The position numbers were made by a program, and so were the translations under genes. From NCBI GenBank assembly GCA_016212695.1, contig JACREX010000147.1:1-58858 (forward strand): 58,858 nt of DNA. Reading direction: 5' to 3'. Below are positions 15,137 through 58,207 of the stretch, in pieces. Below the pieces are notes generated by a model. That model was not told the origin of the DNA. It saw nothing but the letters and a program-made list of their open reading frames with translations, and ran no database searches. The first letter of the stretch is position 1. Every line of letters starts with the position of its first letter. This DNA is from Bacteroidia bacterium (GTDB taxonomy: Bacteria; Bacteroidota; Bacteroidia; Bacteroidales; GWF2-35-48).

Positions 15137-15218
15137 AATTTTTTTGATTAAAGGTATTTCTTTGTAAAGATACTGGAATTTTATATAAAAAAAATCAAAA
15201 ATGTTTGTCAAGCAAATA

Positions 15219-38974: not shown

Positions 38975-38994
38975 TTTAAATAATGGATTTCACT

Positions 38995-40032: not shown

Positions 40033-40034
40033 AC

Positions 40035-40088
40035 AAAAATAGTATTATTTTTACAAAATTAAAAAATAGTATTACTTTTACAATAAGT
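40035..40088. repeat. Two copies of a 27-bp tandem repeat between divergent porP/sprF and the PKD-repeat gene
   Basis: AAAAATAGTATTAtTTTTACAAaAttA / AAAAATAGTATTAcTTTTACAAtAagt; possible regulatory region. Confidence 0.6.
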
Positions 40089-40106
40089 TAAAAAATTAAA
40101 TAGCCG

Positions 40107-43100
40107 GTGAAAGACAGAATTTATCTCATATTTCTTTTTGTATTCTTTTTTTCTGTTTCGTTAAGAGCTCAGGTTACAGCGTCTTTCTCTGCATCCCAGA
40201 CAACGGGTTGCGGCAATCTTCCTTTGGTTAATTTTTTCAATATGTCAACAGGTTCCGGATCATTATCATATGTATGGAATTTCGGAAACAGTAACACATC
40301 TGTTTTACAGAATCCATCTACAAGCTATCCGAATCCGGGCGATTACCTTGTTGTATTGACTGTAACTAACGGTACACAGAGCGATACTGCTGCGGCCATG
40401 ATTCATGTATATAATATTCCTACTGCTATTTTTACATCAGGTAATCATGACGGATGTATTCCGCTTACTGTAAATTTTCAGGATGGCTCCACAGTTACCG
40501 GATCTACAATTATTCAATGGCAGTGGTATTTTGGCGACGGGTATGAATCCAATGATCAGAATCCGGTTCATATGTATCAGACAGCAGGCAGCTATCCGGT
40601 TTCATTACAGGTTACGGATGCGCACGGTTGCGTTTCCACAACCTATAACCTGTCTGATTATGTTCATGCCACGATTGTCCCTGTCATCCAGTTTACATCC
40701 GATTATACAAGTTATTGCCTTGTACCGCTCACTGTGAATTTTACCAATACCACGGTGGGATCAACCGCCCTGACCTACAACTGGACCTTTGGCGACGGTG
40801 GAACATCAACCTTACAGAATCCTTCACATACGTATGTTGATTCGGGTTTCTATGATGTGTCTTTAACTGTTATTGACCAATATGGCTGTTCAAATGATAC
40901 AACTATTACCGACTACATGGACCTTACTATCGTAACCGCATCTTTTTCGGTAGTTGAGGGCGATACGGTTTGCCAGAACCAGATGGTGCATTTTAACAAT
41001 ACATCCGGCGTACCAGGCTGGTGGATTTATGGCAATGGCACAAGCGGAACATTAGATTCAACAATATACCCGAATACCGGAAACGTTACCGTTACGCTGA
41101 TCGCCGCGCCGGGAACACCCTGTGCCGATACGATCTCCCGGAATATTGTTGTCATTGCGCCTCCCATCGCAAATTTTTCTCTCGACGATGAATACGGCTG
41201 CAAGGTGCCACATACCGTTCATTTTACTAATCAGTCCACGGGGGCTGTTTCGTGGGCATGGGCTTTTGGAGACAATAATACTTCTGCCGTTCAGAATCCA
41301 ACAAATATTTATAATACCCAGGGAACTTTTATTATAAATCTGGCCATAGCCAGTTATTACGGTTGCCGGGCCGCTCATTCCGATACCGTTTATATTGAGT
41401 TCCCGGTTGCCGATTTTTTGAATGATACAAATATGGGCTGTAAACCGTTGCCCGTACCCTTTACCAACAGCAGCCACTGCAATACAACTTTTGACAATAT
41501 ATCTTCATATATCTGGACTTTTGGCGACGGGGGCACATCAATACTACAGAATCCCACGCACACTTACACGCAGCCCGGAAATTTTTGGGTACGCCTGACC
41601 ATTACAACTGCGCATGGATGCACGGCCAAAGATTCATTAATCGTTAACGTGGGCTCGCACCAGCATCCGGGATTTGTTCTGGATAATTATATTATCTGCG
41701 CTCAGGACACCATAAAATTTACAAATACATCAACCGATAGAGACACGATCGATTATTACAACTGGTCGTCATCGAGTCCTGTCATATTCGGAAGCGACAC
41801 AATCCCTCTGCCTCCGACCATTGTTAGAAATACTGTTGATACCGGTTATATGAGTATTCAACTGATCGTAGGGTACAATGGATGCAAGGATACCCTTATT
41901 GACAGCATTTATGTAAACGGCCCGATAATAAAAACCCGGTCTGTTGTTACTTCTTTGATGAACTGTAATAATCCGTATCAGTATTTTATGACAACTGTCA
42001 CACAGGGCGTCCAGTACTGGGTATGGAACTGGAGAGACTCTTCGCTTGTTGATACAACTATTCAAGATACCATTATGCATACTTTTCCGGTATCAGAGCC
42101 AAGCACTCCCGATAGAATGGTGTTAATATATGCCGTAAACGATACTACCGGTTGCATATATAAAGACAGCATCTTGGTTCATCCGAAAGATATTCATGCG
42201 AATTTTGACTCGATGGCATGGCACGATACGATTTGTTATACCCCGAATTTGTTTACTGCAAGCAGTTTTAAAGATGCATTTTTCTGGAACTGGAATTTTG
42301 GCGACAATACACCGGCTACAGGGTGGGGCGGCAACATGGTAAGCCACGTGTATGATACATCCGGAACTTTTACTGTCTGGCTGTATGCAAAATCCGAAGT
42401 GCAGAACGAACTTCAGTGTGTGGATTCCGTTTCGAGGCAGGTTCGGGTATTTAAACCTGAAGTCGAATTTAGGGCAGACACATTAATCGGTTGCGCACAA
42501 TCGCCTATTACCGTACCTTTTCATAGCCAGGCATTTTCGAATGATATCGGCCTTATGGCCTGGTTATGGACTTTTGGAGACGGCCAGGTTGCAACCGATA
42601 CATTTGTTACACACTCGTATCCAATAGCAAATTATTATACCGTATCTTTGCAGGTTACCGATTCATTAGGTTGCATCAACTCATTAACAAAAAATAATTT
42701 TATCGCCTCCCTGTCAGTAACGTCTGATTTTAATTCTCCCGATACCATATATTGCACAGGTGAGCCGGTTTCTCTTAATTCAACTTCATCTTTTGGCACG
42801 CCTACTGATGCTGCATACCAGCCAATACATTGGTTATGGTATTTTGGAAACGGCGATTCCAGTCTGGTTCAAAACCCAATGATGTCTTACCCGGTAAAAG
42901 GAGATTATGATGTTACGCTGATTGTATATGATACGCTGGGATGTTCAGACACGCTGATAATAACAAATTATCTGCAGGCGCAAAGTATAAACGCTCAATT
43001 CCGGCTGGTGTTAAATGGCGTTTATGTTTTTTCCGATTCTGCGGTTTCTGTTGCTGATACTAATTGCTATCCGGTTCAGATAGGGTCGCATAATTTAACA

Positions 43101-44546
43101 AATCAAACCCTGACTGAATATAATCCCACTTATATTTGGGATTTTGGCAACGGAGGATCTTCCATTTTGGAAACGCCCAGTTTCAGTTATGTTATGCCGG
43201 GAACTTATTACCTGACTATGCAAACAACCACGTCGCATGGATGCATTGATAAAGACACGATGATTATTCAGGTGGGAGGCCCCTGGGCGGAAATTATTTT
43301 AAGCGACAGTATGATCTGTAAAAGCGATACGGTTGCATTTAATATTACTGATACAATTTCTATTAGTTCCGTGTCATGGAATTTTGGCGATGGGTATGCC
43401 AGTACAAATTTTGCTCCTCAGCATCAATACAGCTATTATCCTGATACCGGGTATTTTGTTGTTACGCTGAATGCTTATTCCGGCTCATGCCAGATGTATC
43501 CTGCAAAAACCGATACGATACATGTTATTGATGTTATAGCCCGTTTTAACAGGGGCAACCAGGATGCAGATACATCGGAATGTCAGCCGTACACTATTTA
43601 TTTCTTCAATCTTTCTACAGGCGCTGATTTATGGAGTTGGAATTTTGGCGATGGAACAACATCAAATACCCAGTTTCCTCCTCCGCACTTATTTGTTAAT
43701 GCCAACCAAAGCAATATGGTTTATAATGTATCCCTGATTATTGCCAGTAGTATAGCCGGTTGTAAAGATACCGTCATAAAACCCGTGGTCATCTATCCCA
43801 CACCGGATATAACAGTTTCAAATGATACGTTAATCTGTATTGGCGGTAATGCCAGCCTGCATGCAACCGGAGGATCCGGCATACTGTGGAGCCCGGTTCA
43901 GGGATTGAGCAGCGCTACATCTTATGACCCGGCAGCGGGGCCGACATTGACAACAAATTATCATGCATTGATTGCAAGCATGTATGGTTGCCAGAATACG
44001 GATTCTGTTATGGTACAGGTTCAGCAAATGCCTACATGGATAAACCTTCATGATACAACTATTGTTATCGGCGAAGTTGTGAATATTTCTTTTGATGTGG
44101 ATCAGAATAATATTTCTTATCAATGGACTCCGGATTATCACCTTTCCTGCACCACTTGCCCGAATCCTGTTGCACAACCGTTGCATTCCACGGAATATAT
44201 AATCAGGTTTGTTGACAGTTCAGGATGTTTTGTACGCACAGATACTATACGTATTAATGTTGACGCTAATTTTTCAGTTGCTGTTCCAACTGTTTTCACT
44301 CCCAATGGAGATACTCATAATGATACTATATATGTTAAAGGCTGGGGAATAAAAAGAATTAAAAAGTTTTCGATATACAACCGGTGGGGGCAGTTGATGT
44401 TTCAGACAGATGACATCCATGTTGGATGGGATGGAACCTATAACGGCCAGAAACAGCCGCCGGATACTTATACCTATTTTGTAGAAGTTGAACTTCTTGA
44501 TGAAACTACCATGAGCAAAAAGGGAAACTTTAGTTTACTGCGATGA
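40107..44546 (+). CDS. Large secreted PKD-repeat protein with T9SS type B (gliding-motility-type) C-terminal domain
   Basis: 1479 aa; many WxFGDGxxSxxxNPxHxYxxxGxYxVxLxV PKD units; C-terminal VFTPNGDTHNDTIYVKGWGIKRIKKFSIYNRWGQLMF...GWDGTYNGQKQPPDTYTYFVE. Confidence 0.94.
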   Translation: MKDRIYLIFLFVFFFSVSLRAQVTASFSASQTTGCGNLPLVNFFNMSTGSGSLSYVWNFGNSNTSVLQNPSTSYPNPGDYLVVLTVTNGTQSDTAAAMIHVYNIPTAIFTSGNHDGCIPLTVNFQDGSTVTGSTIIQWQWYFGDGYESNDQNPVHMYQTAGSYPVSLQVTDAHGCVSTTYNLSDYVHATIVPVIQFTSDYTSYCLVPLTVNFTNTTVGSTALTYNWTFGDGGTSTLQNPSHTYVDSGFYDVSLTVIDQYGCSNDTTITDYMDLTIVTASFSVVEGDTVCQNQMVHFNNTSGVPGWWIYGNGTSGTLDSTIYPNTGNVTVTLIAAPGTPCADTISRNIVVIAPPIANFSLDDEYGCKVPHTVHFTNQSTGAVSWAWAFGDNNTSAVQNPTNIYNTQGTFIINLAIASYYGCRAAHSDTVYIEFPVADFLNDTNMGCKPLPVPFTNSSHCNTTFDNISSYIWTFGDGGTSILQNPTHTYTQPGNFWVRLTITTAHGCTAKDSLIVNVGSHQHPGFVLDNYIICAQDTIKFTNTSTDRDTIDYYNWSSSSPVIFGSDTIPLPPTIVRNTVDTGYMSIQLIVGYNGCKDTLIDSIYVNGPIIKTRSVVTSLMNCNNPYQYFMTTVTQGVQYWVWNWRDSSLVDTTIQDTIMHTFPVSEPSTPDRMVLIYAVNDTTGCIYKDSILVHPKDIHANFDSMAWHDTICYTPNLFTASSFKDAFFWNWNFGDNTPATGWGGNMVSHVYDTSGTFTVWLYAKSEVQNELQCVDSVSRQVRVFKPEVEFRADTLIGCAQSPITVPFHSQAFSNDIGLMAWLWTFGDGQVATDTFVTHSYPIANYYTVSLQVTDSLGCINSLTKNNFIASLSVTSDFNSPDTIYCTGEPVSLNSTSSFGTPTDAAYQPIHWLWYFGNGDSSLVQNPMMSYPVKGDYDVTLIVYDTLGCSDTLIITNYLQAQSINAQFRLVLNGVYVFSDSAVSVADTNCYPVQIGSHNLTNQTLTEYNPTYIWDFGNGGSSILETPSFSYVMPGTYYLTMQTTTSHGCIDKDTMIIQVGGPWAEIILSDSMICKSDTVAFNITDTISISSVSWNFGDGYASTNFAPQHQYSYYPDTGYFVVTLNAYSGSCQMYPAKTDTIHVIDVIARFNRGNQDADTSECQPYTIYFFNLSTGADLWSWNFGDGTTSNTQFPPPHLFVNANQSNMVYNVSLIIASSIAGCKDTVIKPVVIYPTPDITVSNDTLICIGGNASLHATGGSGILWSPVQGLSSATSYDPAAGPTLTTNYHALIASMYGCQNTDSVMVQVQQMPTWINLHDTTIVIGEVVNISFDVDQNNISYQWTPDYHLSCTTCPNPVAQPLHSTEYIIRFVDSSGCFVRTDTIRINVDANFSVAVPTVFTPNGDTHNDTIYVKGWGIKRIKKFSIYNRWGQLMFQTDDIHVGWDGTYNGQKQPPDTYTYFVEVELLDETTMSKKGNFSLLR

Positions 44547-44560
44547 AGGAATTTTAATGT

Positions 44561-44601
44561 AATAACAAAAAAGCAGGTGTCGAGCCTGCTTTTTTGTTAT
44601 T
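44561..44601. terminator. Bidirectional intrinsic terminator between convergent genes
   Basis: Perfect 17-bp stem AATAACAAAAAAGCAGG / CCTGCTTTTTTGTTATT with 7-nt loop TGTCGAG; A-run on one side and T-run on the other. Confidence 0.88.
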
Positions 44602-47600
44602 GTAGTATTAATTTTAGAAGATTTCTTTTATCTCCTTTACATATTTTTAATAAGTACACGCCCCTAGGTAAATTTTTCACATCAATGATTTCCTTATTTA
44701 TATTATGTATTATCTTCTTAGTCATAACGGCTCCTGTAATATCTGTAATTTCAAAAAATGATTCTTGTTGGAGTATTTCAGAGAACTCAATTGTTAATTT
44801 ATTTTTTGCAGGATTGGGATAGACGGTGATAAAACCATCGTCTTGTTCCATTGTAAGAATACCGACATTATCATCAACATAAATCGAATCGGTTGCATAA
44901 CATCCATGAATATTTCCAACAGTGACAAAATACCATCCGTATGCATTTACGCTGATTTGTTGAGTGCTTTCACTTGTAGACCATAGATAACTGTCAAACC
45001 CGGAACCGGCGTCAAGGGTTGCAGGCAGCGCTGTATGCAATGTGTCAGGAGTTAAATTAACAGGAGGCAGCGGATGAACCAGTACAATTATACTGTCTGT
45101 ACTGCTGCACCCTGAAGTATTCGTAACCGTAACGGTAAAAACAGTATTTGACGTAGGCGATACAACTATATTGGGTTGGTTATCGCCATTGCTCCATTGA
45201 TATACCGTTCCTCCGCTTGCCGTAAGAGAAACGCTGTTGCCCACGCAAATGGTAGTATCATTGCTTAGGGTAATAACCGGCGAGGGCGATACTGAAACCA
45301 GCAATGAGTTTGAAATAGTTCCGGTTCCGCAAGCATTAATTCCTTTTACGGCGAGCATTACATTTCCAAAATATGTGGGACTCCATGAAACGGCTGCTGT
45401 TAAGCTATCGCCGGTAATTGTTCCTGCACTGGATGGTAAAAGATACCAGATGTATGAAGTAGCGCTAGGGGCTCCCTGCGTTGTGTAAGAGGTAACTGTA
45501 GTGTCATTCGTACAAACCGATGTCGGCCCGGTTGGCGTTCCGGCTATAGAAGGAATTTGGTTTATTATTATATGAACGCTATCAGCCGCAGTACAGTTAT
45601 TGGCGCCTGTTACGGTTACATAATATACTCCTCCGGTTGAAACATTAATTACGTTTGTCGTGTCGCCAGTATTCCATAAATATGTTATGCCGCCGCTTGC
45701 AAAAACCGCCACTGTATCACCGTAACAGAATGTTGTGTCAGGCCCTGCAGATGCATTTACAAAATAAACCACGACACTTACTGTATCTGAATTATGACAA
45801 CCGTTTCCATCTGTTACCGTAACCATATAATCTGTGGTATTTTGAGGAGCAACAGATATGGTAGCCAAATCTTCTCCCGTGCTCCAGTGATATAATATTC
45901 CTCCGGTTGCCGTAAGAGAAGTATCGTTTCCCCTGCATATAGAGACGTCATTTCCTGCATTGGCAACAGGCAATGGGTTTACAAAAAGATGAATGCTGTC
46001 GCTTGCAGTGCAGCCATTACTATCATATACGGTAACATAAAATATTCCCGCTATTGTAATGAAAATATCTGCTGTGGTATCGCTATTGTTCCATAAATAG
46101 GTAACGCCTCCGCTTGCCGTAAGATGTGCGGTATCGCCAAAGCAGATGGTCGTATCCTGTCCCGCCTCCGCAATAGGCGAAATATTAAAATTAACAGTTA
46201 CGCTGTCAGTAGAAAAACATCCGGTTGATCCGGTTACGGTTACAAAATATATTCCCGCAATAGTAACACTTATTTCTGAAATTGTGTCACCCGTATTCCA
46301 CGCATAAGATGTTCCTCCGCTGGCCAAAAGGATTGCAGTGTCTCCATTACAAATCGTAACATCCTGTCCCGCCTCTGCGTCAACAAAATTGACAACTACC
46401 AAAACCGTATCAGAATTGTGGCATCCGTTATTGTCGGTAGCCGTTACGATATATTCTGTTGTATTAAACGGTACGGTATAGATTGTTGAAATCGTATCTC
46501 CTATGCTCCACACAAAGTGAATACCTCCGGTAGCCGAAAGAAAGGCGGTATCATAACGGCAAATGGTTACATCAACTCCTGCGTCTGCCAGGGGCAAAGG
46601 ATTTATTGTTACGAGGATACTGTCATAGGAATAGCAACCAATATTATCAAAGACTGTAACATAATAATAAACATCGGAAGCAGGGCTCACATCAATTCCT
46701 TGAGTGGTTTCGCCTGTATTCCAGAAATAGGTAACACCTCCGCCAGCCAGCAGATGAGCCGTATCTCCAAAACAAACGGCAATATTATTCCCGGCCTCGG
46801 CAATAGGTAAATTATGAACTGACAATGGCAATGAAAACGATTCTGTGCATCCGTTAGAGCCGGTTATTGTAACACTAAACGGACCCGCAATGGTAACATA
46901 AATAACTGAATCCGTAGCGCCTGTATTCCAACTGTAGGAAGTACCGCCGGTTGCCGTGATAGTGGCAGTATCTCCCGTGCAAATAGCCGTGTCGCCGGAA
47001 ACCGAACCGCCGGAATAATTCACTATAACAAGAACACTGTCCCTGTCAGAACAACCCAAAATATCAAATACTGTGACCTGATAAGCTGTTGAGGAATCCG
47101 GGCTGACAGATATGGATTGAGTGTTTTCATTGGTACTCCATAGATATGAAATACCCCCTGATGCATTCAGTATCGCTGTGTCATACCTGCATATTGCCAA
47201 ATCATTTCCCGCAAAGGCAGAAGGGAGAGGGTTAATAGTAATGAGAACTGTGTCGGTATTGGAACAAGCATTCATGTCTGTGACAGTAACAATATAGGCA
47301 CCTCCTGTAACAACCGGATTCAGAGCATTGGTAACATTATTGCTCCAGAGGTACGAAACGCCGCCGCCGGCATAAAGCATGGCAGTATCATTCTGACAAA
47401 CTGAAGTATCATTTCCGGCATATGCAATAGGTAAACTTAGTACCGTAACAGTGAGGCTGTCGTTTTTCGAACATCCCTGGGGACTGGTAATTGTAACAAA
47501 ATAAGTAGTTGTGATTGATGGAGAGACCGAAATATTTTGGAACGTCTCTCCTGTACTCCATGAATAACCCGATCCTCCATGCGCTGAAATCTGAATGGTG

Positions 47601-50350
47601 TCTTTGAAACAGATCGCTGTGTCGGATCCTGCTCCTGCTGCATCGGCAAACAGGTTGACAGTAACCGTATCACTGTTACTGCAGTTGTTCGCATCTGTTA
47701 CTGTAACTGAATAATCAGCAGTTGCAACAGGATTGACACTGATCTGTTGTGTATTTTCTCCCGTACTCCATGAATAACTGATACCGCCTGTTGCATTAAG
47801 CAAGATGGTTGATCCGATACAAATTATTGTGTCGCTACCGGCAAAAGCGGCAGGCAGAGGATTAATGGTAACAATAACCGTATCTTTATTTGCACATCCG
47901 TTTGAGCCTGTAACTGTAACATAGTATATGTCTGCGATCGTAACAGGATTCTGTGAAACATTAACACCATTGCTCCACTGATAAGAAATACCGCCTGAAG
48001 CATGAAGAAAAGCCGTGTTACCAAAACAAACAGCAGTGTCGGATCCCGCATTGGCATTGGGTAAGCTGAGAATATTTACGATTACGCTGTCGGTATCAGT
48101 ACAGTTATTGGCGCCTGTAACTGTAACATGGAAAATGGTACTGGCCGATGGAGTCACAACAATAATCGGGTTGGTTTCTCCTGTTGACCAGGAATATGAA
48201 TTTCCGCCGCTTGCATGAAGAATGACAGAAGAACCCTGACATACTGTTGTGTCGGGTACTGCAACAGCAGTTATTGTAATAACAGTCACAACAACAGTGT
48301 CTGTTTTTGAACAGTTATTGGCATCAGTCGCGGTTACAATGTAATCAGATGTTGTATTCGTGGAAACAGTTATTTGCTGCAAAGTTTCTCCTGTGCTCCA
48401 GGAATAAGACGTGCCTCCTGAAGCTGTTAATGTAGCCGATGTTCCTATGCAAATAGTATCGTCAATTCCGGCATTGGCAACCGGAAGGGGATTTACTGTT
48501 ACCACAACGCTGTCAATGCTGCTGCAGTTTCCGGCATTTGATACAGTAACACGATATATCCCGGCAGTAACAACATTATTGGAAGCCGTATTAATCCCGT
48601 TGCTCCATTGATATATTGTTCCGCCGCCGGCAAGCAGGTGGGCCGTATCGCCTGAGCAAACTGCGGTGTTGGGCCCTGCTTCTGCAACAGGGTATTGATA
48701 AACAGAAATATTTGAACTATTGGTAGTGCCCGTAACTACAGGGCTTGATGACACAATCCTGATCCTGTAGCCTGTGCCTGCAGGAGTGATTAAAGGAATT
48801 GTCGCATGAATGGTTCCTGCGTTTGACCCGTTTAATGTTCCAATATCAACAGGCGATGCAAAACTGCCTGTAGCATCGGAAAGCTGGGCTGTAAAAATAT
48901 TGCCGCTGTCGAAAACGCCGAAAATAGTAAAGGGGACATCAATGGCTGATCCCACGCAATAGACGAGCGGAGTAATTGTTCCGGTGAAAATTCCATATAA
49001 ATCGAGAATTTCAATATGCCCGTGTTGAAGTACGGTTGATAATGTTGTAAAAGTTGAATCAATAACTTCTACGGGAGTCGGTGAGTTAATAAAATTCAGA
49101 TCAGTATGTTGTCCGATAGTGCCATTGACTGTGAATTTCACGGCGAATATTATGGAAGAATCAACTTTGTCTTGTCCTGCCAAAGTGAGGTCGTACCATG
49201 AAAAAGTGAGTTTTCCGTTTGCTGTCTGCGATGTGCCGAAACTACTTGCATCCATGCCGGGCAATCCGAACTGCTCCACGCTGAGGTATGATACAAGCGA
49301 CTGGTCAAACTGAATAGTCCCCTGCAAAGAAATGATGTTGTAAAAATCTTTTACACGGACCGGAACCACCACCTGTGAGGCCGGAGCTGCGGCAATAGAA
49401 TCTATAATGAGCGTTACAGTTCCGGATGGATTTCCGGTGATATTTACTTTACCGTTTGTTGAATTATATGGAATAGCGGACAAGCTTGTATCAACGAATT
49501 CAAGAGGAGTAACAGAATTAGTAAATGAAATATCAGAATACTGCCCCGCATTTCCGGCTGCATTAAAACGAATGGCGAAAAGGGCCGTATTATCCGGTTT
49601 TGTCTGCCCGGCAAGCGTCTGATCCGACCAGGAGAATGTGAGTTTTCCTGTTGACGTTTGTGTAGTACCGAAATTGCCGGCGCTCAACCCGGAAAGGTTG
49701 AATTGTTCAACATTCATGAATGATGCCACGGCAGGATCAAATTCAATGGTCCCCTGCATGGAAACTATGTCGGTGAAATTATCTACTCTAACAGGAACGA
49801 CAACCTGGGTTCCTGTTAAAGTATTAACAATATCTGCTTTGATAGTAACTCCGCCCGGGCCGGTTCCTGTTATTTGTATTAGTCCAGGAGATGTGGTATA
49901 AGGAACCGTATTAAATGTGATATCAACAAACTCTACTGCTGCAACAGAACTTGTGAGGCTCACCGAAGAGTTTTGTCCGGTATTTCCGGTAAGCTGAAAA
50001 CGCAGGGCAAAAACCACTGAATTGTCGGCAAGAGATTCACCTGATAAATCGCTGTCGAACCAGGAAAATGTAACTTTTCCGTTTCCTGCCTGAGCAGCGC
50101 CGAAATTTGAACTGTTCAGCCCGGGAAGATTATATTGTTCAGTTCCGGAAAAAGTTGCAACAGCCGGGTTGAACTCGATGGTCCCCTGCATGGAAAGTAT
50201 GCCTGTGAAATTTTTTACCTTTGCGTGAATCACCACCTGCTGTCCCTGTGATCCGCTAACTGTATCAAATGTTAAAATCACATTCGATGAAAAAACCGGG
50301 TAAAATGGGATTATAAATAACAGGATTAATAAAGATAATTTTGTATTCAT
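44597..50350 (-). CDS. Large secreted protein: three N-terminal cohesin-like domains, many Ig/PKD-like repeats, T9SS type A C-terminal domain
   Basis: 1917 aa; three copies of VxVPVRVxxFxxIxSxQGTIxFDPxxxxFxxVEQxxLxGLxxxxFGTxQ...KLTFSW; ~80-aa repeats AGxDTxICxGxxxxLxAxGGxxYxWSTGE; C-terminal VYPNPAKNKLTIEF...RGVYLLKI. Confidence 0.92.
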   Translation of the reverse strand: MNTKLSLLILLFIIPFYPVFSSNVILTFDTVSGSQGQQVVIHAKVKNFTGILSMQGTIEFNPAVATFSGTEQYNLPGLNSSNFGAAQAGNGKVTFSWFDSDLSGESLADNSVVFALRFQLTGNTGQNSSVSLTSSVAAVEFVDITFNTVPYTTSPGLIQITGTGPGGVTIKADIVNTLTGTQVVVPVRVDNFTDIVSMQGTIEFDPAVASFMNVEQFNLSGLSAGNFGTTQTSTGKLTFSWSDQTLAGQTKPDNTALFAIRFNAAGNAGQYSDISFTNSVTPLEFVDTSLSAIPYNSTNGKVNITGNPSGTVTLIIDSIAAAPASQVVVPVRVKDFYNIISLQGTIQFDQSLVSYLSVEQFGLPGMDASSFGTSQTANGKLTFSWYDLTLAGQDKVDSSIIFAVKFTVNGTIGQHTDLNFINSPTPVEVIDSTFTTLSTVLQHGHIEILDLYGIFTGTITPLVYCVGSAIDVPFTIFGVFDSGNIFTAQLSDATGSFASPVDIGTLNGSNAGTIHATIPLITPAGTGYRIRIVSSSPVVTGTTNSSNISVYQYPVAEAGPNTAVCSGDTAHLLAGGGTIYQWSNGINTASNNVVTAGIYRVTVSNAGNCSSIDSVVVTVNPLPVANAGIDDTICIGTSATLTASGGTSYSWSTGETLQQITVSTNTTSDYIVTATDANNCSKTDTVVVTVITITAVAVPDTTVCQGSSVILHASGGNSYSWSTGETNPIIVVTPSASTIFHVTVTGANNCTDTDSVIVNILSLPNANAGSDTAVCFGNTAFLHASGGISYQWSNGVNVSQNPVTIADIYYVTVTGSNGCANKDTVIVTINPLPAAFAGSDTIICIGSTILLNATGGISYSWSTGENTQQISVNPVATADYSVTVTDANNCSNSDTVTVNLFADAAGAGSDTAICFKDTIQISAHGGSGYSWSTGETFQNISVSPSITTTYFVTITSPQGCSKNDSLTVTVLSLPIAYAGNDTSVCQNDTAMLYAGGGVSYLWSNNVTNALNPVVTGGAYIVTVTDMNACSNTDTVLITINPLPSAFAGNDLAICRYDTAILNASGGISYLWSTNENTQSISVSPDSSTAYQVTVFDILGCSDRDSVLVIVNYSGGSVSGDTAICTGDTATITATGGTSYSWNTGATDSVIYVTIAGPFSVTITGSNGCTESFSLPLSVHNLPIAEAGNNIAVCFGDTAHLLAGGGVTYFWNTGETTQGIDVSPASDVYYYVTVFDNIGCYSYDSILVTINPLPLADAGVDVTICRYDTAFLSATGGIHFVWSIGDTISTIYTVPFNTTEYIVTATDNNGCHNSDTVLVVVNFVDAEAGQDVTICNGDTAILLASGGTSYAWNTGDTISEISVTIAGIYFVTVTGSTGCFSTDSVTVNFNISPIAEAGQDTTICFGDTAHLTASGGVTYLWNNSDTTADIFITIAGIFYVTVYDSNGCTASDSIHLFVNPLPVANAGNDVSICRGNDTSLTATGGILYHWSTGEDLATISVAPQNTTDYMVTVTDGNGCHNSDTVSVVVYFVNASAGPDTTFCYGDTVAVFASGGITYLWNTGDTTNVINVSTGGVYYVTVTGANNCTAADSVHIIINQIPSIAGTPTGPTSVCTNDTTVTSYTTQGAPSATSYIWYLLPSSAGTITGDSLTAAVSWSPTYFGNVMLAVKGINACGTGTISNSLLVSVSPSPVITLSNDTTICVGNSVSLTASGGTVYQWSNGDNQPNIVVSPTSNTVFTVTVTNTSGCSSTDSIIVLVHPLPPVNLTPDTLHTALPATLDAGSGFDSYLWSTSESTQQISVNAYGWYFVTVGNIHGCYATDSIYVDDNVGILTMEQDDGFITVYPNPAKNKLTIEFSEILQQESFFEITDITGAVMTKKIIHNINKEIIDVKNLPRGVYLLKICKGDKRNLLKLILQ

Positions 50351-50405
50351 AATTTTTTTTCAGGTCTAATGTTATTGAATTTATTTTGAAATGAAAACCT
50401 GTAAA

Positions 50406-50436
50406 AGCCACGCCATTGAAGGCATGGCTTCTTTTT
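50406..50436. terminator. Candidate intrinsic terminator at the end of the 2590-aa gene
   Basis: GCCAcGCC attgaa GGCaTGGC stem followed by a T-rich tract (plus sense). Confidence 0.5.
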
Positions 50437-53400
50437 ATCGGATTACCACCATCTTCTTCATCCCCGTAAACTTATCAGCCTGCATCTTTACAATGTACGA
50501 TCCGCTGCCGGTATTACAATCCCATGTAACCTGATTCATCCCTTTTGCATAATTATCTGTAAACTGTTTAACCGTTTCGCCGAGATAGTTGAGAATTGTG
50601 ATAGTAACTTTTTCATCTTTTGGTAATACAAAACTGATGTTTGTATAATCGCTGAATGGGTTCGGATAGTTCTGTAAAAGCGCGTATCCGCAGTTTTCAT
50701 GTTGCAGCAAAGCGGTAGCATTTTCAATAGTAATACTTGAATTACCGCTGATGATGTCAAGCGTATTCAGGTTGTTGTCGTATGCTTCCGCAAGGGTTGA
50801 CGAAGAATTAATCGAAATCTGTGCTTGTGTTCCGGCATTGCCCATCACATTAAATAAAAGTTCAAAGGCAACAGATCCATCCGGTAGCGTAACGCCATTA
50901 AGATTTTCTGTGCTCCATAATGCCGTGAGTATTCCTTCGCCTGTCCTGTTTGTCCCGAAGAAATTTGTAAGTGCAGAATTATTTGTGCCAACATAACTTA
51001 GCAGTGACGGATCCCAGGTAATGGTAAACTGATATCCGCTGACAGCATTGAAATTTTCAACTTTCACGGGAACTGTAATCAGATTTCCTTCTGGAGCAGT
51101 AACACTTTCCATTGTAAACGTAACACTGCCTGTTTCGCCAGATTTTGAAATGGATGCGTTCCAACTGTTATTTACGTCTCCGAGTTTCGCTGCCACAAAA
51201 TTCTGGTCGGTCAATACAGAAATATCACTGTAGGATCGTGAATTTTCAAACGGGAAAGGATTCATTACATCGGTAAACGAGAAATCAGAATTGACAAATT
51301 TCCATAATGCTCCGTTCGGGAACGTAGTTGATGTCTGCAACACAACAGAACGCATCAGCACAAGATCGAGCGAGCTAACCGAAGAAGAAGCATTCACGTC
51401 TGCGGCAATAATTTTGTAAGCCGAATTCAGTGCTTGTGTTCCGAGAATGTGACGCTGCGTTAAAATAATATCAAGCGTGGTGATGCCATTGCTGGTATTC
51501 ACATCATTGTTTTTATCAGGGGTGATGGTATAGCTCTGACCGTCGTTTACGCTGAACAGGTACTGTCCGTTGGTAGTGGTGGAATAGGTTTGGGTGGTTC
51601 CTCCAGCGCATGTAAGCGTAACTCCTGGAACTGCCACGCCGGTTTCTGTGCGGACAATACCGCTGACATTAACAACGGCCGGCGTGGATGAAACGGTCAC
51701 ACTGACTGTTCCCGCAGTACTATTGCATCCGTTCACACTGGCAACTACCGAATAAGTTCCACTCATAGTTTGCTGTGCATTGGGTATGCTTGGATTCTGC
51801 AAAGCAGACGTAAAAGAATTAGGACCTGTCCATGAATAAGAAGCGCCTGCAACAGTGCTTGCATTAAGCTGTATGGTTCCATTAAGCATTACCGGTGAAT
51901 TGCTGGATGCAACCGGCGCTCCCGGCAATGGATTCACGGTAACATTTACGGTATTGGATGTTGCGCTGCAACTGCCGCTTGTAACAACTACATAATAGCT
52001 GCCTGTTGAACTTACCGTAATGGCCTGTGTTGTCTGCCCTCCGGGCGACCATACATTTCCCGTAGAGCTGCTTGAAGTGAGAATAACAGAATTTCCGGCA
52101 CAGAAGGTGGTTGGCCCGCCGGGTGTTACTGTGGCAGCTACCGACTGGCTTATGGTGAAATTTGTATTGCTTTCATCCATTACCGTGGGGCTGCTGAAGT
52201 CTTTTATTTTGACTTTGCACTGTGTTGATGAAACATTGGGAACTGTCCATGCATAGGTGCCGCTTAGAGTATTATAATTGCTTACAATAGTTGTCCATGT
52301 TGCGCCATTATCTTTGGTGTAATCAATAGTATAATTATTGGAAGTGGAAACAGAATTCCATGTGATGTTCATGGTATTGCAGCCTGTTAGAGTTTCTCCG
52401 CCGTTTGGCGCTGTCACTGTGATGGTGGCGGCAGGAAGGCCTATGGCAAATGTTGCATTGCTCTGGTCGGTTTTGCAGGTATTGAGATTATCGGTGATTT
52501 TTATAAGGCAGTTTGAAGAACTTGCAGATGGAACCGTCCATGAATATGTATTATTCGTGATGGTCTGATTGAAGACGATATTTGTCCAAGCGCTTCCATT
52601 GTTGGTTGAGTAATCAATGTTATAACTGTTCGATGCGCCCAGCGATGTCCATGTGATACTATAAGATCCTCCAACCGTAAGACTTTCTCCACCGTTAGGC
52701 GTTGCCACGGTAATAGCCGGTTTTAATGTAAAAGTGGCATCGCTCACATCGGTTTTGGCAGAATTTCCGGCATCGGTTACCCGCACAAGACATAGTGTGG
52801 AAGGGGTGTTTGGCATAGCCCAGTCATAAGTGATGCTCCCCGTTCCTCCGGCGCTGTAACTTGATGTGATGGTGCTCCATGTGCTGCCGTTGTTGGTTGA
52901 GTATTCAATCTTATATGTACCGGAACATCCGCCTGCAGTCCAGTGTATCGAGGTTTGCGTGCATACGCGCCACTCTTCGCTGCCATTGTCGCCGTTGGGC
53001 GAAGAAATCACCAGCGCAGGATTAATGCTGAATACGGCATTGCTCACATCGTACACTGAAGGATTATTATATTCCGTAACTTTTACCAGACACTTGTTGG
53101 AGTAAATAGCCGGAATGGTCCATGAATAGGTGCCATCGTTTTCAGTAACGCTGGCAATAGGCGACCAGGTTAATCCGCTGTCGGCAGATAAATACAGGCT
53201 CACATAGGTTCCGTTGAAATACTGGTTTGTCCATGTTATACTATAGGATGAAGCATAATATAATGTATTGCCCCCGTTAGGTGTGAGCAGTTGCGGCTGG
53301 GCCGGAGTAACCGTGAAAGAGGCATTGCTCACATCGTACTTGCAGGTATTATTATAATCTTCAACTTTGATTAAATAATTGCTTCCCGGCGAGTTTGGAA

Positions 53401-56400
53401 TAGTCCAGGAAACAGAGTGGGCAGAAGTATAAGAATTAATACTCGTCCATGTTGATCCATTGTTGCTCGAATAATAAACAGCGAAATAAGTCGAACCCGG
53501 ATCAGAAACCCAACTGATGGTTTGCGATGTGGCTACCTGCCAGCTTTCTCCGCCATTGGGCGATGTTACAATCACATCATCGTTCGGCTTCATGGTAAAT
53601 GTTGCATCGCTTGAATCAAATGCCGAGGGATAATTTACGTTCTGCACTTTTATTCTGCAATTACCCGAAAGGGGCGATACGGTCGGGATCGTCCAGTTGT
53701 AGCTTGAACCGGAAGCAGAACTTGTAATGAGGTTCCAAGCAGCGCCGTTATTGGTTGAATAATAAATTTTATAAGATCCACTCAATCCCCATGAATTCCA
53801 TGTTACAGACTGAGTGTTGCATGCTTCCAGGTTCTCGCCCCCGTTCGGAGCGGTAACAACTAAAGAAGGAATGGCAATGGTAAAGTTCGCATTGCTCACA
53901 TCATAGGTTGTGGGATTATTATATTCACTCACCCTTACCAAACAGTTTACAGAAGGGGCATTGGGAACAGTCCATGAATAAGTGCCGTCGTTCTCTGTTA
54001 CATTAATTATTTGCGTCCAGGATGTACCGTTGTTGGTCGAGTAATCTATAGCAACAAAACTCGAAGTGAGATACCCGCTCGACCAGGTAATATTATATGC
54101 GGTGCCTACATACCATGTAACTGCTGTATTTGGGCTGTTAACCGTAATGTAAGGAGTCGGAGGAGCAATGGTAAAGTTTGCATCTGATATATCATAAATG
54201 CAACTGTTATAATAATCTTCAACTTTCACCAGATTCTGTGTGCCCGGATAATTGGGAATGGTCCATGCATAGGTATGACTTGAGGTGTAAGAGTAAAGCG
54301 AAGTCCACCCTGTTCCATTGTTCGTGGAATAATATACATTATAATAAGTTGACGTTGGTTCAGTCACCCATGTGATGTTCTGCGATGTGGCCACCTGCCA
54401 GTTTTCACCGCCATTGGGAGCGGTTACTATGATATCGGTATTTTTCACAAGAGTAAATACGGCATTGCTGGAATCTTTATAAGCGGCATTGCCATTGTCT
54501 GTAACTTTAACCAAGCAGTTTGCAGAATTAATGCTGGGAACAGGATTCCACGTATAGCTTCCGCTCGAAGCGCTGCTTGTGATCGTTGACCACGAAGAGC
54601 CATTGTTAGTTGATAATTTCAAATTAAATGAATTGGATGTTCCCGCATAATTCCATGTAATGCTTTTTGATGAGCAGCCTTTCCAGCTTTCGCCGCCATT
54701 GGGCGAGGTAACGGTGATATAGGGAACAGCAATGGTAAAGTTTACATTGCTTACATCAAAAGTTGCCGGATTGTTATATTCACTCACCCTTACTAAACAA
54801 GTTGCCGAAGGAGCATTGGGAACAGTCCACGAATAGGCGCCGTCGTTCTCTGTCACATTAATTACCTGTGTCCATGATGTTCCGTTGTTGGTCGAGTAAT
54901 CTATAGCGACAAAACTCGAAGTGAGATATCCGCTCGACCAGGTGATATTGTATGCATTGCCCACATACCAGGTAACTGCTGTATTTGGGCTGTTAACCGT
55001 TATGTAAGGCATTGGAGGAGCAATGGTGAAGTTTGCATCCGAAAGATCATATATGCAACTATTGTAATAATCTTCCACTTTCACAAGGTTCTGTGTGCCC
55101 GGATAATTGGGTATAGTCCATGCGTAAGTATGACTTGACGTATAGGAGTAAAGCGATGTCCATCCTGTGCCATTGTTGGTGGAATAATATACATTATAAT
55201 AAGTAGAGGTCGGTTCTGTCACCCATGTGATATTCTGCGATGTGGCCACTTGCCAGTTTTCACCGCCATTGGGAGCAGTTACAATGATGTCGGTATTTTT
55301 CACAAGAGTAAACACAGCATTGCTGGAATCTTTATAAGCCGCATTGCCATTGTCTGTAACTTTAACTAAGCAGTTTGCAGAATTAATGCTGAGAACAGGA
55401 TTCCATGTATAGCTTCCGCTTGAAGCGCTGCTTGTGAGTGTTGTCCACGAAGAGCCGTTATTGGATGATAATTTCACATTAAATGAATTGGATGTTCCGG
55501 CATAACTCCATGTAATACTTTTGGAGGAACAGCCCTTCCAGTTTTCTCCGCCATTGGGCGAGGTAACGGTGATATAGGGAACAGCAATCGTAAAGTTTAC
55601 ATTGCTCACATCATAGGTTGTCGGATTGGTATAGTCGCTTACCTTTACAAGGCAATTTGCCGAAGGTGTATTCGGAACATTCCATGAATAGGCGCCGTCG
55701 TTCTCTGTTACCGCAGCAACATCTGTCCATGTTGAACCATTGTTTGTGGAATACTCAATTTTCACATACGTTGCAGTTACGTATTGGGTAGACCAGGTAA
55801 TATTGTAACTATTGCCCACATACCAGGTAACTGCCGTATTCGGGCTTGTCACGGTGATCACCGGCGTTGGAGGAGTGATGGTAAATACCGCATTGCTCAC
55901 ATCAAATTTGCATGTATTATTATAGTCTTCCACTTTTACTAAATTCTGCGTTCCCGGATAGTTGGGAATGGACCAGGAATACGTATGGTTTGACGTATAG
56001 CTTATAAGCGATGTCCACCCAGTACCGTTATTGGTCGAATAATAAACATTAAAATAAGTAGAGGTCGGCGCAGAGACCCACGTTACAGTTTGTGATGTTC
56101 CAACCTGCCAGTTTTCGCCTCCGTTAGGAATGGTTACAATTACATCCGTATTGGGAGTAATGGTAAATACGGCATTGCTGGAATCAAGAACCGCGGGTGT
56201 GCCATTGCTGATTACTTTTACTAATGCAGTTGCAGATGAAATGCTCGGCACAGGATTCCATGAATAAGAGCCGCTGGTTGCCGAAGCGCTGAGCGTTGTC
56301 CATGCAGCGCCGTTATTGGTAGAATATTTAACCGTAAAACTATTGGTAACGCCGGCATAATTCCATGTGATGCTTTGCGTGGAGCATCCGTTCCAGCTTT

Positions 56401-58207
56401 CGGTTCCATTAGGCGCTGTAACGGTAATGTATGGCGCGGCGATCGTAAATGCCGTATTGCTGACATCATAAGTAGAGGGAGTATAATAATCGCTGACTTT
56501 GACAAGACATTGTGTTGACAATGTGTTTGGAACAGTCCATGCATACGTGCCGTCATTCTCTGTTACGGCAGCGACATCTGTCCACGTAGAACCATTGTTT
56601 GTGGAATATTCTATTTTAACATACGAAGAAGTGACATACTGTGTTGTCCATGTAATGTTGTAACTGTTGCCCACATACCAGGTAACTGCCGTATTCGGGC
56701 TTGTCACGGTTATTACAGGAGTTGGAGGCGAGATGGTGAAAACCGCATCGCTGATATCATATTTGCAGGTGTTGTTGTAGTCTTCCACTTTCACTAAATT
56801 CTGCGTTCCCGGATAGTTGGGTATAGTCCATGAATAGGTATAGTTTGACGTATAGCTTGTGAGCGATGTCCACCCTGTACCGTTATTGGTTGAATAATAA
56901 ACATTGAAATACGTTGAAGTCGGCGCAGAAACCCATGTTACAATTTGCGATGTACCCACCTGCCAGCTTTCTCCCCCGTTTGGAACCGTAACTATCACGT
57001 CCGTATTGGGAGAAATGGTAAATACAGCATTACTTGAATCAACAGTAGCGGAGTTTCCGGTATCATATACTTTAATCAGGGCTTGTGTTGATGAAACATT
57101 CGGAACAGGGTTCCAGTTATAGCTGCTGCCCGATGCGGATGAGGTAATGGTTGTCCATGTAGAGCCGTTATTAACCGAATATTTTATGGTGAATGATGTG
57201 CCGGTTCCCCCGGAGTTCCATGTAATGGTCTGGGAATAACAACCGGTGAGCGTCTCGCTGCCGTTTGGCGCAGTAACCGTAACAAAAGGCGGAGCAATGA
57301 TAAAATTCACATTGCTAATATCATAGGTGGCCGGATTTCCCAGGTCGGTAACTTTTACCAAGCATTGTGTTGACGGTGTATTGGGTATGAGCCATGAATA
57401 CGAACCGGAATTGGTGGTATTGGTTACAACAGGCACCCAGCTTGTGCCATTATTGGTGGAGTAGTCAATTTTAATGGCATTGGAGGTAACCCACTGCGAT
57501 GTCCAGGTGATGTTGTAAGTTTTCCCCACATACCAGGTGACATTTGTATTGGGCGAGGTAACTGTGATTACCGGCGTTGCGGGAGTAATGGTGAACAGGT
57601 TGTCGCTGATATCGTACATGCAGGACGTATTGGTATGATCCTGAATTTTTATGAGGCACGATGTGGAAGGATTGTTAGGCACGCTCCAACTGTAGGTGCC
57701 GTTTGTGATATTTTGGTTGTTGACAATATCCGTATAGGAAGCGCCTCCGTTGAGCGAATATTTTATATCGTAATAATTGGTGGTGCCGGAAGCCACAAAT
57801 GTGACCGCCTGTGTGCTTCCGCCCTGCCAGGTTTCACCTCCGTTAGGGGTAATAAGCAACAGGGGCGCAGTGATAGAGAATGTGGCATCGCTCACGTCGA
57901 AGGTTGCCGGGGTATTTGAATCAGTTACCCTCACTAAGCAGGATGTTGACGACACATTGGGAACTGTCCACGTATATTGGTAATTCGTGATATAAAGCCC
58001 GCTGGTGACCGATATCCACGACGAGCCGTTGTTTACGGAATAGTCAATGGAATAATTGTTCGATACCCCCGATGCGTTCCACGTAATTATTTTCTGCGTG
58101 CATCCCGGCCACACTTCGCCGCCATTGGGCGCTGTGATGGTGATGGTTCCTGCAAATAATGCCAATGACACAAACATTAATCCGAGTAAAAGATAAAATT
58201 TCTTCAT
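50435..58207 (-). CDS. Very large secreted repeat protein: ~21 Ser/Thr-rich Kre9/KNH-like repeats, Ig-like domain, dockerin-like motifs, cohesin-like domain, T9SS type A C-terminal domain
   Basis: 2590 aa; repeats ITVTxPNGGExWxxGxSxxITW...YSTNNGxxWT; DVNTSNGITTLD and DVNASSSVSSLD; ITVPVKVENFNAVSGYQFTITWDPSLLSYVG; C-terminal LLQNYPNPFSDYTNISFVLP. Confidence 0.93.
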   Translation of the reverse strand: MKKFYLLLGLMFVSLALFAGTITITAPNGGEVWPGCTQKIITWNASGVSNNYSIDYSVNNGSSWISVTSGLYITNYQYTWTVPNVSSTSCLVRVTDSNTPATFDVSDATFSITAPLLLITPNGGETWQGGSTQAVTFVASGTTNYYDIKYSLNGGASYTDIVNNQNITNGTYSWSVPNNPSTSCLIKIQDHTNTSCMYDISDNLFTITPATPVITVTSPNTNVTWYVGKTYNITWTSQWVTSNAIKIDYSTNNGTSWVPVVTNTTNSGSYSWLIPNTPSTQCLVKVTDLGNPATYDISNVNFIIAPPFVTVTAPNGSETLTGCYSQTITWNSGGTGTSFTIKYSVNNGSTWTTITSSASGSSYNWNPVPNVSSTQALIKVYDTGNSATVDSSNAVFTISPNTDVIVTVPNGGESWQVGTSQIVTWVSAPTSTYFNVYYSTNNGTGWTSLTSYTSNYTYSWTIPNYPGTQNLVKVEDYNNTCKYDISDAVFTISPPTPVITVTSPNTAVTWYVGNSYNITWTTQYVTSSYVKIEYSTNNGSTWTDVAAVTENDGTYAWTVPNTLSTQCLVKVSDYYTPSTYDVSNTAFTIAAPYITVTAPNGTESWNGCSTQSITWNYAGVTNSFTVKYSTNNGAAWTTLSASATSGSYSWNPVPSISSATALVKVISNGTPAVLDSSNAVFTITPNTDVIVTIPNGGENWQVGTSQTVTWVSAPTSTYFNVYYSTNNGTGWTSLISYTSNHTYSWSIPNYPGTQNLVKVEDYNNTCKFDVSNAVFTITPPTPVITVTSPNTAVTWYVGNSYNITWSTQYVTATYVKIEYSTNNGSTWTDVAAVTENDGAYSWNVPNTPSANCLVKVSDYTNPTTYDVSNVNFTIAVPYITVTSPNGGENWKGCSSKSITWSYAGTSNSFNVKLSSNNGSSWTTLTSSASSGSYTWNPVLSINSANCLVKVTDNGNAAYKDSSNAVFTLVKNTDIIVTAPNGGENWQVATSQNITWVTEPTSTYYNVYYSTNNGTGWTSLYSYTSSHTYAWTIPNYPGTQNLVKVEDYYNSCIYDLSDANFTIAPPMPYITVNSPNTAVTWYVGNAYNITWSSGYLTSSFVAIDYSTNNGTSWTQVINVTENDGAYSWTVPNAPSATCLVRVSEYNNPATFDVSNVNFTIAVPYITVTSPNGGESWKGCSSKSITWNYAGTSNSFNLKLSTNNGSSWSTITSSASSGSYTWNPVPSINSANCLVKVTDNGNAAYKDSSNAVFTLVKNTDIIVTAPNGGENWQVATSQNITWVTEPTSTYYNVYYSTNNGTGWTSLYSYTSSHTYAWTIPNYPGTQNLVKVEDYYNSCIYDISDANFTIAPPTPYITVNSPNTAVTWYVGTAYNITWSSGYLTSSFVAIDYSTNNGTSWTQIINVTENDGTYSWTVPNAPSVNCLVRVSEYNNPTTYDVSNANFTIAIPSLVVTAPNGGENLEACNTQSVTWNSWGLSGSYKIYYSTNNGAAWNLITSSASGSSYNWTIPTVSPLSGNCRIKVQNVNYPSAFDSSDATFTMKPNDDVIVTSPNGGESWQVATSQTISWVSDPGSTYFAVYYSSNNGSTWTSINSYTSAHSVSWTIPNSPGSNYLIKVEDYNNTCKYDVSNASFTVTPAQPQLLTPNGGNTLYYASSYSITWTNQYFNGTYVSLYLSADSGLTWSPIASVTENDGTYSWTIPAIYSNKCLVKVTEYNNPSVYDVSNAVFSINPALVISSPNGDNGSEEWRVCTQTSIHWTAGGCSGTYKIEYSTNNGSTWSTITSSYSAGGTGSITYDWAMPNTPSTLCLVRVTDAGNSAKTDVSDATFTLKPAITVATPNGGESLTVGGSYSITWTSLGASNSYNIDYSTNNGSAWTNIVFNQTITNNTYSWTVPSASSSNCLIKITDNLNTCKTDQSNATFAIGLPAATITVTAPNGGETLTGCNTMNITWNSVSTSNNYTIDYTKDNGATWTTIVSNYNTLSGTYAWTVPNVSSTQCKVKIKDFSSPTVMDESNTNFTISQSVAATVTPGGPTTFCAGNSVILTSSSSTGNVWSPGGQTTQAITVSSTGSYYVVVTSGSCSATSNTVNVTVNPLPGAPVASSNSPVMLNGTIQLNASTVAGASYSWTGPNSFTSALQNPSIPNAQQTMSGTYSVVASVNGCNSTAGTVSVTVSSTPAVVNVSGIVRTETGVAVPGVTLTCAGGTTQTYSTTTNGQYLFSVNDGQSYTITPDKNNDVNTSNGITTLDIILTQRHILGTQALNSAYKIIAADVNASSSVSSLDLVLMRSVVLQTSTTFPNGALWKFVNSDFSFTDVMNPFPFENSRSYSDISVLTDQNFVAAKLGDVNNSWNASISKSGETGSVTFTMESVTAPEGNLITVPVKVENFNAVSGYQFTITWDPSLLSYVGTNNSALTNFFGTNRTGEGILTALWSTENLNGVTLPDGSVAFELLFNVMGNAGTQAQISINSSSTLAEAYDNNLNTLDIISGNSSITIENATALLQHENCGYALLQNYPNPFSDYTNISFVLPKDEKVTITILNYLGETVKQFTDNYAKGMNQVTWDCNTGSGSYIVKMQADKFTGMKKMVVIR
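52140..58150 (-). repeat. Coding repeat region: triplet supermodules, ~855-bp period in the best-conserved copies
   Basis: Three alternating ~95-aa unit types recur in order; TTTTTCACAA at 54441 and 55296 within otherwise near-identical context gives 855 bp. Confidence 0.8.

What the first reader, a model, noticed from the sequence alone, without database searches (positions are those of the whole stretch)
44597..58207. Adjacent tri-cohesin and dockerin-plus-cohesin giant T9SS proteins: possible cellulosome-like surface assembly
The 1917-aa protein begins with three cohesin-like domains (about 49000-50290). The 2590-aa neighbour, same strand and upstream, carries two dockerin-like motifs (DVNTSNGITTLD, DVNASSSVSSLD; about 51335-51530) followed by a cohesin-like domain (about 50750-51130). 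Both end in T9SS type A sorting domains. Cohesin-dockerin pairs mediate Ca-dependent assembly in clostridial cellulosomes. Here no glycoside hydrolase is present, so the inferred role is polymerised adhesin or sheath. The dockerin loops have Ser instead of Asp at position 5, so affinity is uncertain.
Basis: partly seen in the sequence, partly recalled or inferred. Interest (0 to 1): 0.7.

Follow-up and report, generated by a model that had tools for sequence, protein, structure and literature searches.

The report
Conserved enzyme-free cohesin–dockerin surface pair
Two giant secreted proteins made by neighbouring genes of an uncultured Bacteroidota bacterium carry genuine plug (dockerin) and socket (cohesin) modules like those that assemble cellulose-digesting machines, but no enzymes, and the same gene pair recurs across the phylum, so it is probably a self-assembling surface scaffold or adhesin rather than a cellulosome.

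Summary
Protein A (44597-50350, 1917 aa) begins with three Pfam cohesins. Protein B (50435-58207, 2590 aa) carries one two-loop type I dockerin followed by one cohesin. Both end in T9SS type A sorting domains. In the whole 4.03 Mb genome these are the only four cohesins and the only dockerin, although at least 150 proteins carry T9SS tails. No enzyme domain is present, so this is not a cellulosome.

The pair is a conserved module. B's unit (small beta 'X-like' domain, dockerin, GDVNxSW motif, cohesin, T9SS tail) recurs across Bacteroidota, including cultured Hymenobacteraceae. In 25 of 42 relatives with readable downstream sequence, the next gene also carries a cohesin, usually three or four at its N-terminus. 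B's cohesin belongs to a separate, well-supported clade from the A-type cohesins.

AlphaFold gives a confident X-dockerin-cohesin fold (pLDDT 93, pTM 0.89) with a helix after each calcium loop. The two loops vary in concert at the cohesin-contacting positions, as dual-mode dockerins do. A read-through B-A1 model (pTM 0.74) hints at docking.

Best reading: an enzyme-free, probably Ca-dependent B-on-A surface scaffold or adhesin. Binding and function are untested. It is a new variant of a known kind.

The parts
44597..50350 (-). protein A: 1917 aa, three N-terminal cohesins, Ig_7-like repeats, T9SS type A tail
50285..50350 (-). signal-peptide-like N-terminus of A (MNTKLSLLILLFIIPFYPVFSSN), read by eye
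   Evidence: translation; no signal-peptide program was available
49865..50287 (-). cohesin A1
   Evidence: PF00963 43.5 bits; profile A3 E 5.6e-27
49433..49852 (-). cohesin A2
   Evidence: PF00963 48.7 bits; profile A3 E 3.5e-30
49007..49426 (-). cohesin A3
   Evidence: PF00963 45.9 bits; profile A3 E 4.4e-28
44831..48970 (-). stalk of Ig_7 (CHU_C-associated Ig-like) repeats of A
   Evidence: PF19081 81.5 bits, 8 stretches
44606..44824 (-). T9SS type A sorting domain of A
   Evidence: PF18962 58.2 bits; TIGR04183 38.9 bits
50435..58207 (-). protein B: 2590 aa, Kre9/KNH-like repeat stalk, X-like domain, dockerin, cohesin, T9SS tail
51968..58150 (-). stalk of about 20 Ig-like repeats of about 95 aa (PNGGE-type, Kre9_KNH), then Ig/PKD-like segments
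   Evidence: PF10342 35.8 bits, 5 stretches; motif spacing of about 95 aa
51515..51682 (-). CarboxypepD_reg-like beta domain directly before the dockerin (X-module-like position)
   Evidence: PF13620 24.5 bits, below its cut-off of 32.3; five strands predicted
51341..51505 (-). type I dockerin
   Evidence: PF00404 32 bits; helices at model residues 69-80, 88-94 and 104-114
51470..51505 (-). dockerin loop 1, DVNTSNGITTLD
   Evidence: D1, G7 and D12 conserved, positions 3 and 5 variable
51365..51400 (-). dockerin loop 2, DVNASSSVSSLD
   Evidence: D1, N3, S/D5 and D12 conserved in 44 relatives
51161..51181 (-). conserved GDVNNSW motif between dockerin and cohesin (possible third Ca half-site; role unknown)
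   Evidence: G, D and N in 44 of 44 relatives, W in 43 of 44
50714..51133 (-). cohesin of B, member of a separate post-dockerin cohesin clade
   Evidence: PF00963 43.6 bits; clade support 97/94; Foldseek E 6.7e-12 to a solved cohesin
50444..50668 (-). T9SS type A sorting domain of B
   Evidence: PF18962 44.2 bits; TIGR04183 35.6 bits
50351..50434 (.). 84-nt gap between the two genes; B is upstream and A downstream on the same strand

Best explanation
The two genes encode an enzyme-free, T9SS-exported cohesin-dockerin scaffold. Both proteins are secreted through the type IX system and left on the cell surface or in the matrix. Protein A is a small scaffoldin: three cohesin sockets on an Ig-like stalk. 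Protein B is a long Ig-like fibre whose X-like-dockerin-cohesin head plugs, probably with calcium, into the sockets of A, so that one A can gather up to three B fibres. B's own cohesin belongs to a different cohesin class and either steadies the dockerin in cis or accepts the dockerin of another B, extending the assembly. The product is a multivalent adhesive or protective coat, not a degradative machine. Shown by computation: module identity, gene pairing and its conservation, T9SS tails plus a T9SS translocon gene, and absence of enzymes and of other dockerins. Suggested by models only: fold, dual-face symmetry, docking of cohesin A1. Inferred: binding, calcium dependence, stoichiometry and adhesive role.
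For: Only dockerin and only four cohesins of the genome lie in these two adjacent genes, among at least 150 T9SS-tailed matches, with a SprA translocon gene present. Pair conserved: same-genus genome and 10 further family-level lineages of the order; named genomes from Bacteroidales, Flavobacteriales, Cytophagales and Chitinophagales; cohesin in the next gene downstream for 25 of 42 relatives. Cohesin and dockerin co-occur in 25 of 99 order-level genomes against 12.9 expected, p 1.5e-7. X-Doc-Coh folds as one rigid unit, pTM 0.89, with cohesin matches to solved structures. The two dockerin loops vary in concert at positions 9-11, 13-14 and 22-23 but not at positions 2-7, still at p 0.001-0.007 after thinning to 14 sequences below 40% identity. 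Read-through B-A1 chain: pTM 0.74; calculated values are about 0.52 if A1 and the tail float and 0.69-0.77 if A1 is placed.
Against: No binding was measured. Loop 1 lacks canonical Asp at position 5 and its positions 3 and 5 drift, so one Ca site may be weak. Each protein has its own T9SS tail, so assembly is not needed for anchoring. 17 of 42 relatives lack a detectable cohesin in the next gene. The read-through model joins two proteins by an artificial linker, coordinates and PAE were not available, and A1 could be packed on B's cohesin rather than on the dockerin. The genome is 90.5% complete, so an extra dockerin could be missing.
Confidence: 0.58

Rival explanations
1. Cis clamp: the dockerin of B binds B's own neighbouring cohesin within the same chain, forming a compact calcium-stabilised cap before the T9SS tail; A is a separate adhesin with cohesin-fold decoration.
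For: X-Doc-Coh is a conserved unit and is predicted as one rigid body, pTM 0.89 against about 0.49 calculated if the cohesin floated. The post-dockerin cohesins form their own clade that travels with the dockerin.
Against: It does not explain why a multi-cohesin gene so often follows or the concerted variation of two symmetric faces. Rigid packing need not use the dockerin's cohesin-binding face.
Confidence: 0.2
2. Cell-to-cell adhesin: A on one cell and B on its neighbour form a trans cohesin-dockerin bridge and hold aggregates or biofilms together, rather than a complex on one cell.
For: Both proteins are independently tailed for T9SS surface display, both have long fibre-like stalks, and A has three sockets.
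Against: Co-expression from adjacent genes favours assembly on the same cell first; no aggregation data exist.
Confidence: 0.12
3. A degenerate remnant or a true cellulosome: the pair once organised, or still organises, dockerin-bearing hydrolases encoded elsewhere.
For: Relatives in the same order carry tens of dockerin proteins, some with peptidase domains.
Against: No second dockerin in the own genome, even with a family-specific profile. Neither A nor B carries an enzyme domain. The module is maintained in many lineages.
Confidence: 0.05
4. Passive modules: cohesin-fold and dockerin-fold units serve only as structural beta and EF-hand spacers in large surface proteins and do not bind each other.
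For: Bacteroidota surface proteins carry many Ig-like spacers, and dockerin-like hits without cohesins exist in the same order (15 of 40 dockerin genomes).
Against: Significant co-occurrence and adjacency; concerted loop variation at contact positions.
Confidence: 0.1

Closest known systems
Noncellulosomal cohesin-dockerin proteins of archaea: Archaeoglobus fulgidus (cohesin structure 2xdh; Bayer 1999, Voronov-Goldman 2011, cited in PMC9012536 and PMC9705933) and ANME archaea (PMC9012536)
   Same: Cohesin and dockerin modules without cellulases, in some ANME proteins a dockerin together with several cohesins; B's cohesin matches 2xdh at E 1.1e-10, TMt 0.77. From my own knowledge, A. fulgidus also keeps a cohesin+dockerin gene beside a cohesin gene.
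   Different: Here export is by T9SS, with a long Ig-like stalk, an X-like domain before the dockerin and a separate three-cohesin partner gene conserved across a phylum.
Scaffoldin-like T9SS system of Candidatus Stygibacter (Cloacimonadota; PMC8542988)
   Same: A multi-cohesin scaffoldin with a surface-attachment C-terminal domain in a Gram-negative.
   Different: Stygibacter docks peptidases and glycosidases; here there is no enzyme, and the only dockerin lies in the neighbouring gene's product.
Clostridial cellulosome (type I and type II cohesin-dockerin, e.g. A. cellulolyticus ScaB 5nrk/5nrm, C. thermocellum CipA X-Doc)
   Same: Cohesin fold, type I dockerin with two loop-helix repeats, and a beta domain directly before the dockerin that resembles the X-Doc arrangement.
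   Different: No enzymes, no CBM detected, no SLH or sortase anchor; a cohesin follows the dockerin in the same protein; T9SS export.

Membership tests
Cellulosome | non-catalytic scaffoldin with several cohesins | tested here: met
   three PF00963 cohesins in A, 113.6 bits
Cellulosome | dockerin-bearing hydrolases in the genome | tested here: not met
   single dockerin in 4.03 Mb, in B, with no enzyme domain; genome 90.5% complete
Cellulosome | carbohydrate-binding module on the scaffold | tested here: not met
   no CBM among Pfam hits of the full-length A and B
Type I dockerin (PF00404) | profile score over curated cut-off | tested here: met
   32 bits against a cut-off of 22.9
Type I dockerin (PF00404) | two Ca loops with ligands at 1, 3, 5 and 12, each followed by a helix | tested here: inconclusive
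   helix after each loop; loop 2 ligands conserved, with Ser at position 5 usual; loop 1 positions 3 and 5 drift
Type I dockerin (PF00404) | binds a cohesin, Ca-dependent | not testable with these tools
   indirect only: concerted contact positions, pTM of read-through model
Cohesin (PF00963) | profile score over cut-off and cohesin fold | tested here: met
   four of four over 24.1 bits; Foldseek TMt about 0.8 to solved cohesins for B's cohesin
T9SS cargo | C-terminal sorting domain plus T9SS machinery in the genome | tested here: met
   TIGR04183 on both; SprA_N at E 1.3e-185; a PorP/SprF gene in the window
Noncellulosomal cohesin-dockerin system | cohesin and dockerin on non-enzymatic proteins in a genome without dockerin-bearing enzymes | tested here: met

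The most novel reading that the evidence does not exclude
A phylum-wide, enzyme-free 'plug-and-socket' surface polymer of Bacteroidota. X-Doc-Coh heads link long T9SS fibres to each other through the post-dockerin cohesin and to multi-socket scaffoldins through A-type cohesins, giving a two-specificity, calcium-switchable extracellular lattice used for adhesion or as a sheath. The Coh-Doc-Coh chain genes of Pontibacter, Sabulibacter, Botryobacter and Adhaeribacter would be the most elaborate form.
Probability: 0.3. Interest if true: 0.78.

Novelty: new variant of a known kind. Interest (0 to 1): 0.6.

Why it matters
What cohesin-dockerin pairs do outside cellulosomes has been an open question since they were found in archaea. 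This module gives a recurring, genetically linked pair with an obvious partner assignment (one dockerin and four cohesins in this genome) and relatives in cultured, named strains, so binding, calcium dependence and an adhesive role can be tested directly. It would also add a new type of T9SS cargo: one that assembles after export. The domains could supply new orthogonal cohesin-dockerin pairs for protein engineering.

Tried and rejected
Pfam scan of the full-length giants did not report the cohesins; rescanning segments did. No plasmid record holds a relative of B's unit. Paper searches combining cohesin, dockerin and Bacteroidota terms found no description of this pair; the key survey (Peer et al. 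2009) and most subscription papers are not held, so absence of prior description is not proven. A search for fibrils in Adhaeribacter found nothing useful. Cellulosome membership was rejected on the single dockerin and lack of enzymes. Cohesin array positions A1-A3 do not each form one clade in the tree, so the array seems to have been reshuffled or homogenised within lineages; that tree has few columns and rough support.

Full report
What is there. Two large ORFs lie tandemly on the minus strand: B (50435-58207, 2590 aa, upstream) and A (44597-50350, 1917 aa, downstream), 84 nt apart. A starts with a signal-like peptide and then three cohesins (A1 49865-50287, A2 49433-49852, A3 49007-49426; together 113.6 bits for PF00963), followed by Ig_7-like repeats and a T9SS type A tail. 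B has a long stalk of about 95-aa Ig-like repeats (Kre9_KNH type), then a CarboxypepD_reg-like beta domain, one type I dockerin, a conserved GDVNNSW motif, one cohesin and a T9SS type A tail. No enzyme domain was found in either full-length protein. A1-A3 are 38-49% identical to each other and 31-35% identical to B's cohesin.

Is it more than chance. Yes. All four cohesins and the dockerin exceed Pfam's curated cut-offs in a whole-genome six-frame search. At E<=0.001 the cohesin search rings in only one of 14 control genomes, an archaeon. A 44-sequence profile of B's unit finds solved cohesins and dockerins in the PDB by sequence. AlphaFold on that alignment gives pLDDT 93.2 and pTM 0.89, with helices directly after each dockerin loop, and Foldseek matches the cohesin to solved cohesins at E down to 6.7e-12, including the noncellulosomal cohesin of Archaeoglobus.

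Genome context. The window is contig C64 of a 4.03 Mb, 90.5% complete genome, of the same genus as the MAG Bacteroidetes bacterium GWF2_35_48 (G001 contig C132 and MEOG01000132.1 have the same length and the same coordinates). It holds a SprA-type T9SS translocon gene and at least 150 T9SS-tail matches (150 is the number scored). Only A and B carry cohesin or dockerin. A family-specific profile found no further dockerin: the only other matches are weak hits to the CarboxypepD-like part. This rules out a normal cellulosome, in which many enzymes carry dockerins, subject to the missing tenth of the genome.

Conservation. In the same order, cohesins occur in 32 and dockerins in 40 of 99 genomes, together in 25 (12.9 expected, p 1.5e-7). 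In the loci fetched by place, a dockerin or dockerin-cohesin gene is followed on the same strand by a cohesin gene in 11 genomes, each from a different family-level lineage (L064/L065, L068, L069, L072/L073, L074, L075/L076, L077, L078, L081, L082, L083; in L081 the first gene shows a cohesin only, and in L082 the cohesins lie mostly in the same giant ORF). A genome-wide scan returned 56 loci from Bacteroidales, Flavobacteriales, Cytophagales, Chitinophagales and a few Verrucomicrobiota, Lentisphaerota and others. Of 42 B-type genes with more than 900 bases of sequence downstream, 25 have a cohesin in the next gene. The closest ones repeat the exact plan 'X-Doc-Coh, then three cohesins' (L084, L086, L087, L090-L095, L098, L102-L103; in L102 and L103 an extra one-cohesin gene lies between). 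Cultured Hymenobacteraceae (Pontibacter, Sabulibacter, Botryobacter, Adhaeribacter) have strings such as Doc-Coh, Coh-Doc-Coh and single-Coh genes.

Clues to mechanism. (1) The cohesins that follow a dockerin form their own clade (31 rows, 28 of them post-dockerin, support 97/94), apart from A-type and upstream cohesins: two cohesin classes, hence perhaps two roles. (2) In 44 relatives the two dockerin loops change together at positions 9-11, 13-14 and 22-23 but not at positions 2-7; this survives thinning to 14 sequences under 40% identity. Positions 10-11 are the established cohesin contacts of type I dockerins (general knowledge), and a symmetric binding face with dual binding modes is the known hallmark (PMC12484212). 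Phylogeny can inflate such counts, but the neighbouring variable positions show no effect. (3) Loop 2 keeps its Ca ligands (D1, N3, S/D5, D12); loop 1 keeps D/E1, G7 and D12 only. (4) B and A happen to lie in one reading frame, so a chain reading through the stops was modelled from native DNA: X-Doc-Coh-tail-linker-A1, 607 aa, pTM 0.74. A simple calculation gives about 0.52 if A1 and the tail float and 0.69-0.77 if A1 is placed (this calculation was printed after the model came back). This suggests a defined position for A1, but without coordinates I cannot say that the dockerin face makes the contact, and linked chains favour compact models.

Interpretation. The most economical explanation is that B's dockerin uses A's cohesins, because they are the only other cohesins in the genome and are encoded next door, and that B's own cohesin either buttresses the dockerin or accepts another B. 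The result would be a multivalent fibre bundle on the cell surface. Adhesion or coating is inferred from the stalk-like architecture and absence of catalytic domains; nothing here measures it.

Relation to known systems. Cohesins and dockerins outside cellulosomes are known in archaea (PMC9012536 and references therein), and a multi-cohesin protein with a surface-attachment C-terminal domain that docks enzymes is described for Ca. Stygibacter (PMC8542988). I found no description of a conserved, enzyme-free X-Doc-Coh plus multi-cohesin gene pair in Bacteroidota, but the library lacks key subscription papers. I therefore call it a new variant of a known kind.

Noticed in passing
G004 (same-order genome), loci L177-L181 and L197-L216: A 2.6 Mb Bacteroidota genome with 38 dockerin matches and two adjacent poly-cohesin proteins. 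Dockerin cargo includes three gingipain-like C25 peptidases, two C10 peptidases, an M14 carboxypeptidase, a peptidyl-arginine deiminase, Omp28 and BspA-LRR proteins; no glycoside hydrolase was seen among about 25 proteins scanned. It looks like a protease-loaded cellulosome-like system and deserves its own study.
   Followed up: partly
G049, G053, G076, G094, G095 (same-order genomes): Eleven to 58 or more dockerin matches per genome; G094 also has 21 cohesin matches, including ORFs of 6522 and 8081 aa with many cohesins.
   Followed up: partly
window 5502-15211, minus strand: Three tandem paralogous 960-1205 aa proteins with repeated GYSNTSG-type motifs and a C-terminal Peptidase_S74 (endosialidase chaperone) domain, as in phage tail fibres.
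   Followed up: no
window 36785-44546: OmpA/PD40/TPR gene and PorP/SprF gene next to a divergent 1479-aa protein with 11 PKD matches and a T9SS type B tail: a typical PorP-linked T9SS type B export cluster beside the cohesin pair.
   Followed up: no
window 51161-51181 (GDVNNSW): A short motif between dockerin and cohesin, nearly invariant in 44 relatives across phyla; it resembles the first half of an EF-hand loop and may be a third calcium half-site. Unexplained.
   Followed up: partly
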